A stretch of DNA of 64,000 bases from Halorubrum hochsteinianum (GTDB lineage: Archaea > Halobacteriota > Halobacteria > Halobacteriales > Haloferacaceae), in contig NZ_CP098415.1 in the NCBI RefSeq assembly GCF_023702125.1, positions 1,860,001 to 1,924,000 on the forward strand, in the 5' to 3' direction. Of the stretch, positions 41,687 to 60,062 are shown piece after piece (positions within the stretch are counted from its first letter, which is position 1; every line of letters starts with the position of its first letter). The notes under the pieces are model-generated. The model was not told the origin of the DNA, ran no database searches, and worked only from the letters and a program-made list of their open reading frames with translations. The translations under genes and the position numbers were made by a program.

Positions 41687-42589
41687 ATGGCAGCGACTCA
41701 CGCGGACGAGGGGAGCGAGCCGATCCGGGCGGCGCGGTCGGCGCTCCGGGTCGAGCGGCGGCGGGTCGTCGACGAGCGGGAGGCGTTCCGGGCGTTCCGC
41801 GGCCGCGTGTCGTCGATCCCGGACGAGAGCGCGTGCGCCGACCCGGCGGACAGCGCGGGGATCGGCGGTCCGGGCGGGACCCGCGCCCCCGGCGGCGCGC
41901 GCGGCGGGTTCGGCGGCGCGACGGACGGCGGAGTCGGACTCGGCGGCCCGGCGACCCCCTCCGGCTCGCGGCTCGTCGCCGTGCGGGACGCGTACCGGTC
42001 GACGGTGATGTCGGTCCCGCACTACGAGGCGGAGTACGACGACACCTACGAGCGGAGCCTCGCCGAGGAGTTCGGTCCGGAACTCGCGTACGCGCTCACC
42101 CGGACGAACTGCTTCCGCGAGGAGTACAAGCGCTCGCTCCTGAGCGCGGTCGAGACCGCGGTCCAGAAGCGCGAGGCGTTCCTCGACGCGCTGAAGTCGG
42201 AGGTCGAGTCGGTCGAGCGCGCGCGGTCCAGACTCGATCCGGTCCGGGAGGAGATCGCGGCCATCGACGAGGAGCTCGGCGGCGACGGGGAGCGGGAGGC
42301 CGGCCGCGACGACGGGGACGGAGCGACCGCCGACTTCGGCGCGCTCGACGCCTGTCGGACCCGGACCGAGACGCTCCGCGAAGACTGCGACCGGATCGCG
42401 GCCCGCCGGCAGCGCGTGCTCGCGGACCACGAGCGTCGCCTCGCGCTGAGCGAGGACCTCGACCTCCCGGCGTACTGCTATCAGGACCTCGACGTGACGT
42501 ACCCGGTCCTCGCGGCCGTCGGCGCGGTCGGCGACCGACTGGATACGCTTCGCCGTCGGATCGAGCGTGAGATGGGACGGGCGCGCTGA
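41687..42589 (+). CDS. Haloarchaeal coiled-coil protein of unknown function
   Basis: A 300-residue protein with a helical N-terminus (ALRVERRRVVDEREAFRAFRGRVSSI), a Gly-rich linker (about 58-92), a conserved middle (VRDAYRSTVMSVPHYEAEYDDTYERSLAEEFGPELAYALT) and a long coiled coil (about 145-195 and 220-265). The C-terminus ends LDLPAYCYQDLDVTYPVLAAVGAVGDRLDTLRRRIE. No enzyme motif is visible. Similar proteins are common in haloarchaea without known function. It is the last gene before the repeat-rich accessory patch. Confidence 0.78.
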   Translation: MAATHADEGSEPIRAARSALRVERRRVVDEREAFRAFRGRVSSIPDESACADPADSAGIGGPGGTRAPGGARGGFGGATDGGVGLGGPATPSGSRLVAVRDAYRSTVMSVPHYEAEYDDTYERSLAEEFGPELAYALTRTNCFREEYKRSLLSAVETAVQKREAFLDALKSEVESVERARSRLDPVREEIAAIDEELGGDGEREAGRDDGDGATADFGALDACRTRTETLREDCDRIAARRQRVLADHERRLALSEDLDLPAYCYQDLDVTYPVLAAVGAVGDRLDTLRRRIEREMGRAR

Positions 42590-42619
42590 TACGTTTCAGA
42601 TTATCAGCTCTCAGCCGAC

Positions 42620-42868
42620 ACGAACACCGCCTGCGCCTGCCTCGCGACTGCCCCTTCGAGTCCCGCCCCGCCACAGCAACACCGGAAGACGGTCGCCTCG
42701 CTCCGCTCGGCGCTGCGTCTTCCGTACTCCCGCTCGCTCCCTCCGGTCGCTCACGGGACCGCGCCTCACGCCTCCCCAGCCTCGTCGGCGGCTCCCGGTG
42801 GTCGCTGCCGACTCCCTCGCGCGTGCTGGCTCGCGGCCTGTCGGCCGCTCGCAGGCACGCGCCACCGC
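42620..42868 (-). repeat. Dispersed hairpin-rich repeat, copy A
   Basis: Read on the minus strand, this segment shares identical blocks of 15 bp (42809-42823), 21 bp (42764-42784) and 16 bp (42644-42659), in the same order, with copy B at 59.6 kb. Between the blocks the sequence differs but keeps inverted repeats: GTCGGC (42784-42789) with GCCGAC (42807-42812), and a 9-bp stem 42683-42691 with 42716-42724. No protein is evident. It fills the 343-bp gap before the small membrane gene. It may encode a structured RNA or be a mobile-type repeat. Confidence 0.65.
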
Positions 42869-43312: not shown

Positions 43313-43320
43313 GGAGAACT
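43313..43320 (+). repeat. Left 8-bp target site duplication (GGAGAACT)
   Basis: GGAGAACT immediately precedes the left end of the toxin-antitoxin element and recurs exactly at 44288-44295 just after its right end. Confidence 0.9.
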
Positions 43321-43338
43321 GGCTCTGTTGAAATCCTC
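43321..43338 (+). repeat. Left terminal inverted repeat of the TA element
   Basis: GGCTCTGTTGAAATCCTC; matches the inverted sequence at 44270-44287 at 17 of 18 positions, differing at base 5. Confidence 0.9.
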
Positions 43339-43424
43339 TTCTTCAGATATATTCTCGTCTGAAACAGCCGGTCGATGAGTTGCGAATTGATCGCTGAGAA
43401 CCCTCCCAGTTTGAGACGAATCGC

Positions 43425-43841
43425 CTACGCACTCGCCGGAGCGCTGTCGGCATCGCCGTTATCGATGAGCGGGTAGTCGATGTGGACTTCGATGCGGTCG
43501 AATGGGACGACCGGTTGTATCGCGCCGCTCGGGCCGCCCTCTTCGAGCGTAAGGATACCCAGCACCTCCAGTTGCTTCAGGTCAGAGTGGACGTCGGATA
43601 CGTCTCGCTCGACGAGCCGCGCCGCTTCGCGCATGCTTTCGGGAGCTTCCTCGGCGATCGCTCGGATGAGTTCGAGGCGGAGCGGGGTGAGGCTGTCGAC
43701 GAAGTCGTCGTAGGTTCCGAACTGGAGCGTCGCCTTTCCGTCTTGGTCGTCGAGGTTGTCGTCCTCGATGTCCTGGACGAACTGGAGTGTATCCTGACGG
43801 AGCTGTTCTCGGTCGCCGACGGTGATGTGGAGTGTGGTCAT
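43425..43841 (-). CDS. HVO_A0114-type winged-helix DNA-binding protein (probable antitoxin)
   Basis: A 138-residue protein. The N-terminal 50 residues (TLHITVGDREQLRQDTLQFVQDIEDDN ... ATLQFGTYDDFVDSLTPLRLELIRAIAEE) precede a winged helix, EAPESMREAARLVERDVSDVHSDLKQLEVLGILTLEEGGPSGAIQPVVPFDRIEVHI. This matches haloarchaeal HVO_A0114-type putative DNA-binding proteins, which regularly accompany TumE-like genes. It starts 33 bp after the toxin stop on the same strand. As antitoxin it would neutralise the partner and probably bind the paired operators upstream of the module. Confidence 0.85.
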   Translation of the reverse strand: MTTLHITVGDREQLRQDTLQFVQDIEDDNLDDQDGKATLQFGTYDDFVDSLTPLRLELIRAIAEEAPESMREAARLVERDVSDVHSDLKQLEVLGILTLEEGGPSGAIQPVVPFDRIEVHIDYPLIDNGDADSAPASA

Positions 43842-43874
43842 GGTCGGGGTGGCGGTAGGTCGGGTGGTGTTCGA

Positions 43875-44192
43875 TCAGTGTGGCCGGGGCGGGTCGCCGC
43901 CGACAGCGTCCCAGTACTCGTCCGCACTCGCCCAGAACTCGACGAGCAGCTCCTCCATCCCAGGGAACTCGACGCCGTCGAGATCACCAGCTGCGGTGTG
44001 ATGCTCGTGCCCCTTCGTGTCCTCGTGGGAGTTGTCGTACCGAACGAGCGTGAGATCGTCGAGGGTGCCCAGATGGAGCGTGTACTTCCAGCCCGAGGGG
44101 TACGTCTCGGTGTCGTCAGTCGGTCGAAGCACGACGTTCTCGACGAGGCCGGCTTCGACGTGCGTGTACTGGAAGAACGGCTCTGAGGGCAT
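43875..44192 (-). CDS. TumE-like toxin component (DUF6516 type)
   Basis: A 105-residue protein with the TumE-like core WKYTLHLGTLDDLTLVRYDNSHEDTKGHEHHTAAG: the RYDN followed by a His-rich HEHH stretch is the family signature. The N-terminus (VEAGLVENVVLRPTDDTETYPSG) and the short helical C-terminus (GMEELLVEFWASADEYWDA) are typical in length. It is the first gene of the module, read from an ATG at 44192 that follows a TATA-like box by about 32 bases. Family members are predicted toxins of type II modules; the activity of this one is untested. Confidence 0.83.
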   Translation of the reverse strand: MPSEPFFQYTHVEAGLVENVVLRPTDDTETYPSGWKYTLHLGTLDDLTLVRYDNSHEDTKGHEHHTAAGDLDGVEFPGMEELLVEFWASADEYWDAVGGDPPRPH

Positions 44193-44201
44193 CCCTTACG
44201 T

Positions 44202-44219
44202 GTTGGGATAGGCCCCAAC
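44202..44219. promoter_or_regulatory. Operator copy 1 of the TA promoter (GTTGGG-N6-CCCAAC)
   Basis: A perfect 6-bp inverted repeat with a 6-base spacer, lying 10 bases before the toxin ATG. A near-identical copy lies 27 bases further upstream, so the two sit on roughly the same scale of helix turns, with the TATA-like box between them. Confidence 0.65.
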
Positions 44220-44228
44220 GGCATAAGC
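44220..44228 (-). promoter_or_regulatory. TATA-like box of the TA module
   Basis: GCTTATGCC read on the minus strand lies 28-36 bases before the toxin ATG, between the two operator repeats. Binding at either repeat would hinder TBP and TFB. Confidence 0.5.
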
Positions 44229-44246
44229 GTTGGGCAGAAGTCCAAC
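44229..44246. promoter_or_regulatory. Operator copy 2 of the TA promoter (GTTGGG-N6-TCCAAC)
   Basis: The same 6-6-6 layout as copy 1 with one mismatched base in the right arm. It lies upstream of the TATA-like box, still inside the element (right end at 44287). Confidence 0.6.
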
Positions 44247-44269
44247 ACCGAACAGAAACGCTGGGCTCT

Positions 44270-44287
44270 GAGGATTTCAACAAAGCC
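44270..44287 (-). repeat. Right terminal inverted repeat of the TA element
   Basis: On the minus strand this reads GGCTTTGTTGAAATCCTC, 17 of 18 bases identical to the left end. Confidence 0.9.
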
Positions 44288-44295
44288 GGAGAACT
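44288..44295 (+). repeat. Right 8-bp target site duplication (GGAGAACT)
   Basis: Exact repeat of 43313-43320. The pre-insertion site can be read as AATACAGGAGAACTACAGAG. Confidence 0.9.
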
Positions 44296-58774: not shown

Positions 58775-59572
58775 ATGGAACCCACTACCGCTGACCGCGA
58801 CCTCTTCCCGGCCCCCCGCTCGAAGGTCTTTCAGGACCAGGGGAAGTTCCGCACTCGGTTCAACTTCCCCGGGCGAAACCTCCCCGACCACGACGACCAC
58901 GGCTACGGGCCGCTCTCGACGGTCGTCGAGTCGTTCATGGACCCGGGCACGCTGATCCGGATGCACCAGCACCGCGACGAGGAGATCGTCTCGTGGGTCC
59001 CGGCGGGCGTGATGCGCCACGACGACCGCGAGGGGAACGAACTCGTCACCGACCCGGAACACCTCCTCGTGATGAACGCTGGGGCGGGCTTCTGGCACGC
59101 GGAGGAGACGCTCGCGGACGACCCGCCGCTCCGCATGCTCCAGATATTCGTCCGGCCGCGGGAGTTCGGCTTAGAGCCCGGCATCCAGCACGGCCCGCTG
59201 CCCGACCCCGAGCCGAACGAGTGGCGGCGGGTGTTCGCGCCCGCCGGCTCCGACCACCCGTTCACCGTGCGCAACGCGGTCGACTGCTTCGACGCCCGCC
59301 TCGACGCGGACGCGAGCGCGATGCTGCCCGAGATCGAGGGCAGAGACGCCTACGTGTACGTCTTCGAGGGATCTGCCGGCGTCGGCGGCGACCCCGCGGC
59401 CGACGCGGACGAGTCGACCGAGGGCGTCGCGCTCGATAAGACGGAGAGCGTCGTCTGGACCGGCGGCGGCGCGCCGCCGACCGTGACCGCGGGCGAGGAG
59501 GGGGCGACCGTCGTGGCGTTCTTGATCGACCCTGACGCGCCCGTGACCCGGCAGGGAACTATCGGGCGGTAG
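58775..59572 (+). CDS. Pirin family bicupin
   Basis: A 265-residue pirin-like protein. The N-terminal cupin carries the metal ligands in PGTLIRMHQHRDEEIVSWVPAG, the connecting NAGAGFWHAEE and LQIFVRPREFGLEPGIQHGPLP, typical of pirins. The C-terminal cupin is more divergent and has an acidic insert (DPAADADESTEGVALDK). Pirins act as quercetinases or redox sensors. The ATG at 58775 follows GTTTTACC by about 15 bases. Confidence 0.89.
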   Translation: MEPTTADRDLFPAPRSKVFQDQGKFRTRFNFPGRNLPDHDDHGYGPLSTVVESFMDPGTLIRMHQHRDEEIVSWVPAGVMRHDDREGNELVTDPEHLLVMNAGAGFWHAEETLADDPPLRMLQIFVRPREFGLEPGIQHGPLPDPEPNEWRRVFAPAGSDHPFTVRNAVDCFDARLDADASAMLPEIEGRDAYVYVFEGSAGVGGDPAADADESTEGVALDKTESVVWTGGGAPPTVTAGEEGATVVAFLIDPDAPVTRQGTIGR

Positions 59573-59589: not shown

Positions 59590-59955
59590 AAGCGGTGCGG
59601 TGGCGCGTGCCGGTGAGCGGCCGGTAGGCCGCGAACCGCACGCGCGAGGGAGTCGCTGGCGGTCGAGCGAAGCGATGACCGCCAGCGACGAGGCTGGGGA
59701 GGCGTGAGGTGCTGTGCGCGGTGGGAATCGAAGGGGCAGTCGCCGGCGCTACGCGCCGGCTGCCGGAGAATCTTCGATTCTCGCTGCCGGGAGGATGGCC
59801 CAGGGGACGTAAGTACCGCAAGGAGCGAGTGAAACGAGCGACTGAGGAGCGTGGTTCGAGAGAGCGAAGCTCTCTCGTCATCACGAGACGCCGAAGGCGT
59901 CTCGAACGACAGCGAGCGTGCGCCATCCTCCCGGCTGGGGCTTCGGTGGTCGTGT
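59590..59955 (+). repeat. Dispersed hairpin-rich repeat, copy B
   Basis: Contains the same 15-bp (59641-59655), 21-bp (59689-59709) and 16-bp (59728-59743) blocks as copy A, in the same order. Between and after them are perfect hairpins: a 13-bp stem 59652-59664/59677-59689, an 8-bp stem 59742-59749/59753-59760, a 7-bp stem with a TTC loop at 59766-59782, and two 9-bp stems with GAA loops (59857-59877 and 59884-59904). No gene is seen in it. The dense stem-loop pattern suggests a structured RNA or an RNA-coded mobile repeat. Confidence 0.7.
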
Positions 59956-60062
59956 CGATCACTCGGGAATAACCGGAAGCATCATCGTATCTTCGCGCTC
60001 CCCGACGGGTACGGGCTCAATCGGCCGAAACAGCTTACTCGGAAGCGTCGGCACGGATCCCC

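What the first reader, a model, noticed from the sequence alone, without database searches (positions are those of the whole stretch)
42620..42868. Repeat copy A: conserved blocks with changed but still-paired hairpins
Copy A (minus strand) and copy B (59590-59955, plus strand) share three identical blocks of 15, 21 and 16 bp in the same order. In between, the sequences differ but each forms its own stems: in A GTCGGC/GCCGAC, in B a 13-bp stem at the same place. This is the covariation expected for a conserved RNA shape. It also sits at the edge of the accessory patch.
Basis: seen in the sequence. Interest (0 to 1): 0.6.

Follow-up and report, generated by a model that had tools for sequence, protein, structure and literature searches.

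The report
Hundred-copy folded RNA-like repeat, Halorubrum
Copies A and B are two of about 120 copies, in this genome alone, of a roughly 300-base intergenic repeat of salt-loving archaea whose stems change sequence but stay paired; a few copies still sit inside a small jumping element, and most have lost those ends while keeping the fold.

Summary
A and B share identical blocks of 15, 18, 24 and 16 bp in one order. They belong to a family with about 120 copies in this 3.06-Mb genome and 14-181 in each of 34 other genomes of the genus; relatives occur in 24 of 74 haloarchaeal genera. No Rfam family matches.

Three hairpins show strong compensatory change. On 17 aligned copies the covariation score is 0.374 against 0.126±0.014 for shuffles, 0 of 500 reaching it. 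Two adjacent G·A mismatches inside hairpin 1 never change (54/54). G·T outnumbers A·C on one strand only, so that strand is the folded one. An RNA is likely; transcription was not tested. Copy A has lost hairpin 3.

Three copies are enclosed by IS6-family ends at fixed distances. One has an 8-bp target duplication and an empty site in a close relative. 268 of 283 copies show no transposon ends, yet about 96% of their stem positions still pair.

Best reading: a structured RNA first spread as cargo of IS6-type miniature transposons and then kept by selection and exchange between copies. Its function is not established.

The parts
42613..42868 (-). Copy A of the repeat (truncated: hairpin 3 cannot form)
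   Evidence: intergenic, downstream of the DUF7260 gene (41687-42589 +)
42854..42868 (-). Conserved block 1, GCGGTGGCGCGTGCC, 5' side of hairpin 1
42819..42862 (-). Hairpin 1 of copy A (outer stem GCGCGTGC/GCACGCGC, G.A/A.G pair, inner stem)
42784..42812 (-). Hairpin 2 of copy A (GTCGGC/GCCGAC)
42764..42787 (-). Conserved block 3, CGACGAGGCTGGGGAGGCGTGAGG (family signature)
42648..42664 (-). Conserved block 4, GGGACTCGAAGGGGCAG (5' arm base of hairpin 3; its 3' partner is missing in A)
59597..59959 (+). Copy B of the repeat (complete, with extra inserted hairpins)
   Evidence: follows a pirin-family gene ending at 59572
59603..59645 (+). Hairpin 1 of copy B
59652..59689 (+). Hairpin 2 of copy B (13-bp stem)
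59686..59709 (+). Conserved block 3 (family signature)
59723..59739 (+). Conserved block 4 at the base of hairpin 3, 5' side
59740..59786 (+). Two inserted hairpin modules (CCGGCGCTACGCGCCGG, GAGAATCTTCGATTCTC); absent from the copy at the same place in the sister genome G020
59787..59934 (+). Hairpin 3 of copy B (CCGGGAGGATGG/CCATCCTCCCGG)
59852..59910 (+). Inserted double-hairpin module GGTTCGAGAGAGC...GACGCCGAAGGCGTCTCGAACGAC; absent in sister G020, found elsewhere in haloarchaea, for example behind a TnpB-like gene
59935..59946 (+). Conserved block 5, CTGGGGCTTCGG: 3' side of hairpin 3 and start of the tail unit

Best explanation
The repeat is a high-copy, non-coding, intergenic element of Halorubrum whose forward strand folds into three hairpins joined by invariant G-rich linkers. 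Shown: the copies, the compensatory changes, the strand asymmetry, the exclusion from genes, and IS6-family ends around a few copies, one with a target duplication and an empty site. Inferred: (1) it spread at least partly as cargo of miniature IS6-type transposons moved by IS6 transposases in trans; (2) after insertion the transposon ends decayed while the folded core was kept, by selection on the fold and by recombination between copies that swaps whole hairpins; (3) the forward strand is transcribed, by read-through from the gene upstream or from its own AT-rich box, and the RNA is bound by a protein not yet identified. Whether the RNA serves the host or only its own upkeep is open.
For: Copy number: 120 in this genome and 14-181 in 34 congeners. 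Covariation: 0 of 500 shuffles; hairpin 1: 898 of 918 cells paired, shuffle maximum 784; hairpin 2: 378 of 390, maximum 342; hairpin 3: 1108 of 1170, maximum 1007. CGAAG/CTTCG changes to CAAAG/CTTTG together across about 100 nt (pair 7/116, 17 double changes). G.T to A.C is 98:20, or 55:20 without one constant pair. Forward strand folds better in 20 of 20. G.A/A.G invariant in 54/54. No copy inside a gene (0 of 69 and 0 of 172), with gene 3' ends preferred. IS6 ends on both sides in 3 copies at -243..-248 and +325..+331, homologous to the ends of an intact IS6 element. 8-bp repeat CGTGATAA around the G061 unit, and an empty site in G016. Inner inverted repeat GATAGCGGGAGTGRGTGT in 11 copies (5') and 10 (3'), 0 in the control orientation. 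Ends lost but stems kept in 268 copies. Orthologous sites with swapped hairpins.
Against: No transcript evidence. Only 3 of 284 copies have both IS6 ends, so most copies need not have moved that way, and the other two do not show clean 8-bp repeats. Recombination between copies can by itself move perfect hairpins about, so conservation is not proof of selection at each site. The AT-rich box lies too close (about 12 nt) to the body to be an ordinary promoter for hairpin 1. No protein partner was found. The tail repeats with 3-bp steps are not explained.
Confidence: 0.6

Rival explanations
1. The fold acts as single-stranded DNA, as a substrate for a hairpin-recognising transposase or replication enzyme, and not as RNA.
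For: Hairpin-rich repeats moved by single-strand transposases are common in haloarchaea (IS605-type elements and PATEs, PMC3119063). G.T asymmetry and tandem G.A pairs also form in DNA. A clean empty site exists.
Against: The moved unit in G061 has IS6-type ends and an 8-bp duplication, as expected of a DDE transposase and not of a single-strand one. Only 4 TnpB genes, none near copies. Stems persist in copies without any transposon ends.
Confidence: 0.2
2. Neutral debris: recombination between copies and template-switch correction of imperfect palindromes keep the hairpins perfect without any function.
For: At orthologous sites with nearly identical flanking genes, whole hairpins and tail units are exchanged. 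Many ready-made hairpin modules are inserted.
Against: The G.A/A.G mismatches in hairpin 1 and the GGG/GGG internal loop of hairpin 3 stay unpaired while their neighbours covary; palindrome correction would remove them. Linker blocks are nearly invariant. The family persists across a genus and, more diverged, in 24 genera.
Confidence: 0.2
3. REP/BIME-like element at gene ends that terminates transcription or protects mRNA 3' ends.
For: Copies lie between genes, a median of 44-58 bp behind the stop codon of a codirectional gene upstream, and avoid divergent promoters (convergent 77 against divergent 26 in other genomes).
Against: No T-run for archaeal intrinsic termination: the longest T run in the core is 1-3 in 180 of 185 copies. 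Upstream genes are codirectional in only 37 of 69 own copies. Tolerance of insertion explains the placement equally well.
Confidence: 0.15
4. Omega-RNA or HEARO-like guide RNA left over from IS605/TnpB or IscB elements.
For: A structured element of about 300 nt, dispersed and non-autonomous, with variable hairpins.
Against: Rfam finds no meaningful match even at E up to 5. TnpB has 4 genes, 3 of them on the plasmid, none beside a copy. The intact unit has IS6 ends.
Confidence: 0.03

Closest known systems
IS6-family MITEs (PMC7986276 lists two, of 227 and 336 bp)
   Same: Three copies have IS6-type tips (GGCTCTGTTGAAATCC-like), subterminal homology to an intact IS6 element and, in one, an exact 8-bp duplication
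   Different: They carry a conserved folded core. The core is found in hundreds of copies without the ends, and the IS ends occur in either orientation around it
Bacterial REP/BIME, ERIC and similar intergenic palindromic repeats (own knowledge)
   Same: High copy number, intergenic, mainly chromosomal, placed at gene 3' ends, paired stems
   Different: Much larger three-hairpin body with invariant single-stranded linkers, tail repeats and class-wide relatives; no RAYT-type partner was looked for
PATEs and SMRs of Haloquadratum (PMC3119063)
   Same: Transposase-free haloarchaeal repeats with palindromes. The double-hairpin module inside copy B resembles a small mobile repeat
   Different: PATEs have no terminal inverted repeats and derive from IS605; here the intact units have IS6 inverted repeats and, in one case, a target duplication
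Large structured RNAs such as HEARO/omega-RNA (own knowledge)
   Same: Dispersed, structured, about 300 nt, mobile-element linked
   Different: No Rfam match and no TnpB nearby

Membership tests
IS6-family MITE | IS6-type terminal inverted repeats on both ends | tested here: inconclusive
   Met by 3 of 284 copies at fixed offsets; 9 (5') and 8 (3') copies have an inward-facing end against 4 and 4 in the control orientation; not seen in the rest, including A and B
IS6-family MITE | 8-bp target duplication and empty site | tested here: inconclusive
   Met in G061 (CGTGATAA on both sides, empty site in G016); L288 flanks match 6 of 8; L239 does not match
IS6-family MITE | No transposase gene, ends homologous to an IS6 element with a transposase | tested here: met
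   For the three units with ends: they align to the 926-bp IS in pHrrPV6, whose transposase scores 175 bits to NF033587
Conserved structured RNA | Compensatory substitutions beyond chance | tested here: met
Conserved structured RNA | Strand asymmetry (G-U tolerated, A-C not) | tested here: met
   98:20 on the forward strand; forward folds better in 20 of 20
Conserved structured RNA | Transcript observed | not testable with these tools
   No RNA-seq data available
Any Rfam family | Match above gathering score | tested here: not met
   0 matches in the window; nothing near a gathering score at E up to 5
PATE / IS605-derived repeat or omega-RNA | Linked TnpB or IS605-type ends, no inverted repeats | tested here: not met
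REP/BIME-type repeat | Intergenic, high copy, never in genes, paired stems | tested here: met
REP/BIME-type repeat | Dedicated single-strand transposase (RAYT) partner | not tested
   No search for Y1 transposases near copies was made
Protein-coding repeat | Open frame or codon-phase variation in the tail units | tested here: not met
   No frame open in all unit types; entropy by codon phase p 0.17-0.96

The most novel reading that the evidence does not exclude
A new class of large structured archaeal RNA, about 100 copies per genome, that began as cargo of IS6-type miniature transposons and was taken over for a chromosome-wide role, with 3-bp-stepped tandem tails as part of its mechanism.
Probability: 0.3. 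Interest if true: 0.85.

Novelty: new variant of a known kind. Interest (0 to 1): 0.62.

Why it matters
If transcribed, it would be among the most numerous structured RNAs per genome in any archaeon, shared by every Halorubrum examined and absent from Rfam. It offers a case in which the cargo of a miniature transposon outlives the transposon ends, so selection on a mobile RNA can be measured directly by comparing strains. The 3-bp step in the lengths of non-coding tail repeats is unexplained. With this many copies, the repeat also affects annotation of short ORFs and assembly in a whole genus.

Tried and rejected
Protein-coding tail: unit lengths are multiples of 3 in 117 of 122 distinct units, but no frame is open in all types and variability has no codon phase. 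Known RNA family: Rfam negative. Virus- or phage-borne: no exact signature in IMG/VR and no phage record. TnpB/omega-RNA: rejected. CRISPR: a weak DR20 hit (E 0.042, half the gathering score) falls on one inserted hairpin. Strand-of-chromosome bias: an apparent bias was an artefact of the truncated list. A first gene caller picked shadow ORFs and was retrained on acidic proteins. Literature searches found no description of this repeat; the library is open-access only. PMC2841640, PMC3119063 and PMC5852579 were searched by keyword, and the passages shown describe other repeats or sRNAs.

Full report
Where it is. The window lies at 1,860,001-1,924,000 of the 2.96-Mb main contig of a 3.06-Mb genome. 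Its genus-mates include a genome whose contig of 157,540 bp equals in length that of Halorubrum distributum JCM 10118 NZ_AOJN01000023.1, so the genus is taken as Halorubrum.

Observation. Copies A and B share four identical blocks of 15, 18, 24 and 16 bp in the same order. The 23-bp signature GACGAGGCTGGGGAGGCGTGAGG, with up to three mismatches, occurs 64 times on one strand and 56 on the other in this genome, while the reversed control occurs 0 times. All 34 other genomes of the genus in the first sample carry 14-181 copies; one genome of another family has 31. A covariance model of the first 111 positions finds relatives in 71 of 242 genomes and 24 of 74 genera of the class, with dozens of copies in some. 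Both copies are intergenic: A lies behind a DUF7260 gene, B behind a pirin-family gene.

Anatomy. In a complete copy the order is: AT-rich box TTTATAA in many copies; GCGGTGGCGCGTGCC; hairpin 1; GCACGCGCGAGGGAGTCG; hairpin 2; GACGAGGCTGGGGAGGCGTGAGG; a GC-rich linker; GGGACTCGAAGGGGCAG; the long hairpin 3; CTGGGGCTTCGG; and a tail of one to seven tandem units that each start again with CTGGGGCTTYGG. Copy B is complete and carries inserted hairpin modules that the sister genome G020 lacks at the same place. Copy A has lost the 3' half of hairpin 3 and carries other hairpins in the linker.

Structure. For copies with equal spacing, hairpin 1 has 898 of 918 paired cells (shuffle mean 759, maximum 784), hairpin 2 has 378 of 390 (326, 342) and hairpin 3 has 1108 of 1170 (991, 1007). 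On 17 gap-free copies the covariation score is 0.374 against 0.126±0.014, with 0 of 500 shuffles reaching it; sliding the partners by 1-3 columns gives 0.006-0.081. The base of hairpin 3 changes CGAAG/CTTCG to CAAAG/CTTTG together, about 100 nt apart. Within hairpin 1 a tandem G·A/A·G pair is invariant in 54 of 54 while its neighbours covary. G·T cells outnumber A·C cells 98:20 on the forward strand (55:20 without one constant U·G pair), and the forward strand folds to lower energy than its complement in 20 of 20 copies. This identifies the forward strand as the folded one and makes RNA the likely molecule. It does not show a transcript.

Placement. With a codon model trained on acidic proteins, no copy lies inside a gene (0 of 69 in this genome, 0 of 172 elsewhere). 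In other genomes 77 lie between convergent genes and 26 between divergent ones; in this genome 20 and 9. The median gap from the stop codon of a codirectional upstream gene is 44-58 bp. These are my own gene calls, not curated ones. Spacing along the first half of the chromosome is slightly more even than random (coefficient of variation 0.77 against 0.82-1.18). Among annotated plasmids, one Halorubrum record matched copy B, whereas IS6-type ends matched nine Halorubrum plasmid records by the same method.

Mobility. Syntenic stretches of two close genomes (G016 and G061, 91% identity) share eight element sites; three are only in G061. At one of them the element sits in a unit of about 590 bp flanked by CGTGATAA on both sides, and G016 has no insertion there. 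The unit's ends are IS6-type: they align to the ends of a 926-bp IS in plasmid pHrrPV6 whose transposase is an IS6-family member (NF033587, 175 bits), and IS6 elements make 8-bp duplications and have GG tips with cTGTt and caaa motifs (PMC7986276). Two other copies, L239 and L288, have such ends at the same distances (-243 to -248 and +325 to +331 from the signature). The IS ends stand in opposite orientations around the core in different units. An inner inverted repeat GATAGCGGGAGTGRGTGT is found at -172 to -183 in 11 copies and on the far side in 10, never in the control orientation. A series of decay is visible, from full IS6 ends to eroded ends to inner repeats only to core only. In 268 of 283 copies neither is seen, yet stems remain 96-97% paired. 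G061 now has no recognisable IS6 transposase, while this genome has 20.

Turnover. At orthologous sites with nearly identical flanking genes, hairpin interiors and tail units differ completely while blocks and pairing stay. Exchange between copies therefore seems to take place, and conservation of any one copy cannot by itself be read as selection at that site. The invariant mismatched pairs and loops argue that selection on the fold acts as well, because mere correction of palindromes would remove them. That step is inference.

Function. Not established. I favour a transcribed, protein-bound RNA kept by selection on its fold, without deciding between service to the host and selfish upkeep. 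An intrinsic terminator is unlikely, since the core has almost no T runs and orientation towards the upstream gene is only weakly biased. The AT-rich box is too near the body to be an ordinary promoter for hairpin 1.

Unexplained. Tail units are 48, 51, 54, 57, 60, 63, 66, 69 or 75 bp long: 117 of 122 distinct units are multiples of three, although the middle of the unit is hypervariable. No frame is open throughout and variability has no codon phase.

Novelty. No Rfam match, and no description was found in the open-access library. It works partly like an IS6 MITE and partly like a REP-type repeat, but the great majority of copies do not show IS6 ends, so the family as a whole is not filed under either.

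Noticed in passing
window 43321-44287: A separate IS6-ended unit: tips GGCTCTGTTGAAATCC / GGCTTTGTTGAAATCC with an exact 8-bp duplication GGAGAACT on both sides (43313-43320, 44288-44295). It carries no transposase but an HVO_A0114-family HTH gene (43425-43841 -) and a TumE-like toxin gene (43875-44192 -, E 5e-11), which looks like a toxin-antitoxin pair carried by a non-autonomous IS6 element.
   Followed up: partly
tail of the repeat, e.g. L014, L059, L108, L240: Tandem tail units whose lengths step by 3 bp without coding signs (117 of 122 distinct units).
   Followed up: partly
window 59740-59786 and 59852-59910; L018, L030: Short modular hairpins of about 21-24 bp (e.g. GAGAATCTTCGATTCTC, GCCGGCGCGTAGCGCCGGC) are inserted singly or in rows into the hairpins of many copies; a related double-hairpin module lies behind a TnpB-like gene in Natrarchaeobaculum.
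   Followed up: partly
G016 versus G061 syntenic stretches (L341-L357): Elements at orthologous intergenic sites carry entirely different hairpins and tails although flanking genes are nearly identical, which points to frequent exchange between copies.
   Followed up: partly
L222 (Halorussus halobius), L172: Halorussus relatives have the same order of blocks but their own tail repeat (GAGCGCGCCGAGGGCTTTCGAGGCTGTG...), so the tail seems to be an old part of the family.
   Followed up: no
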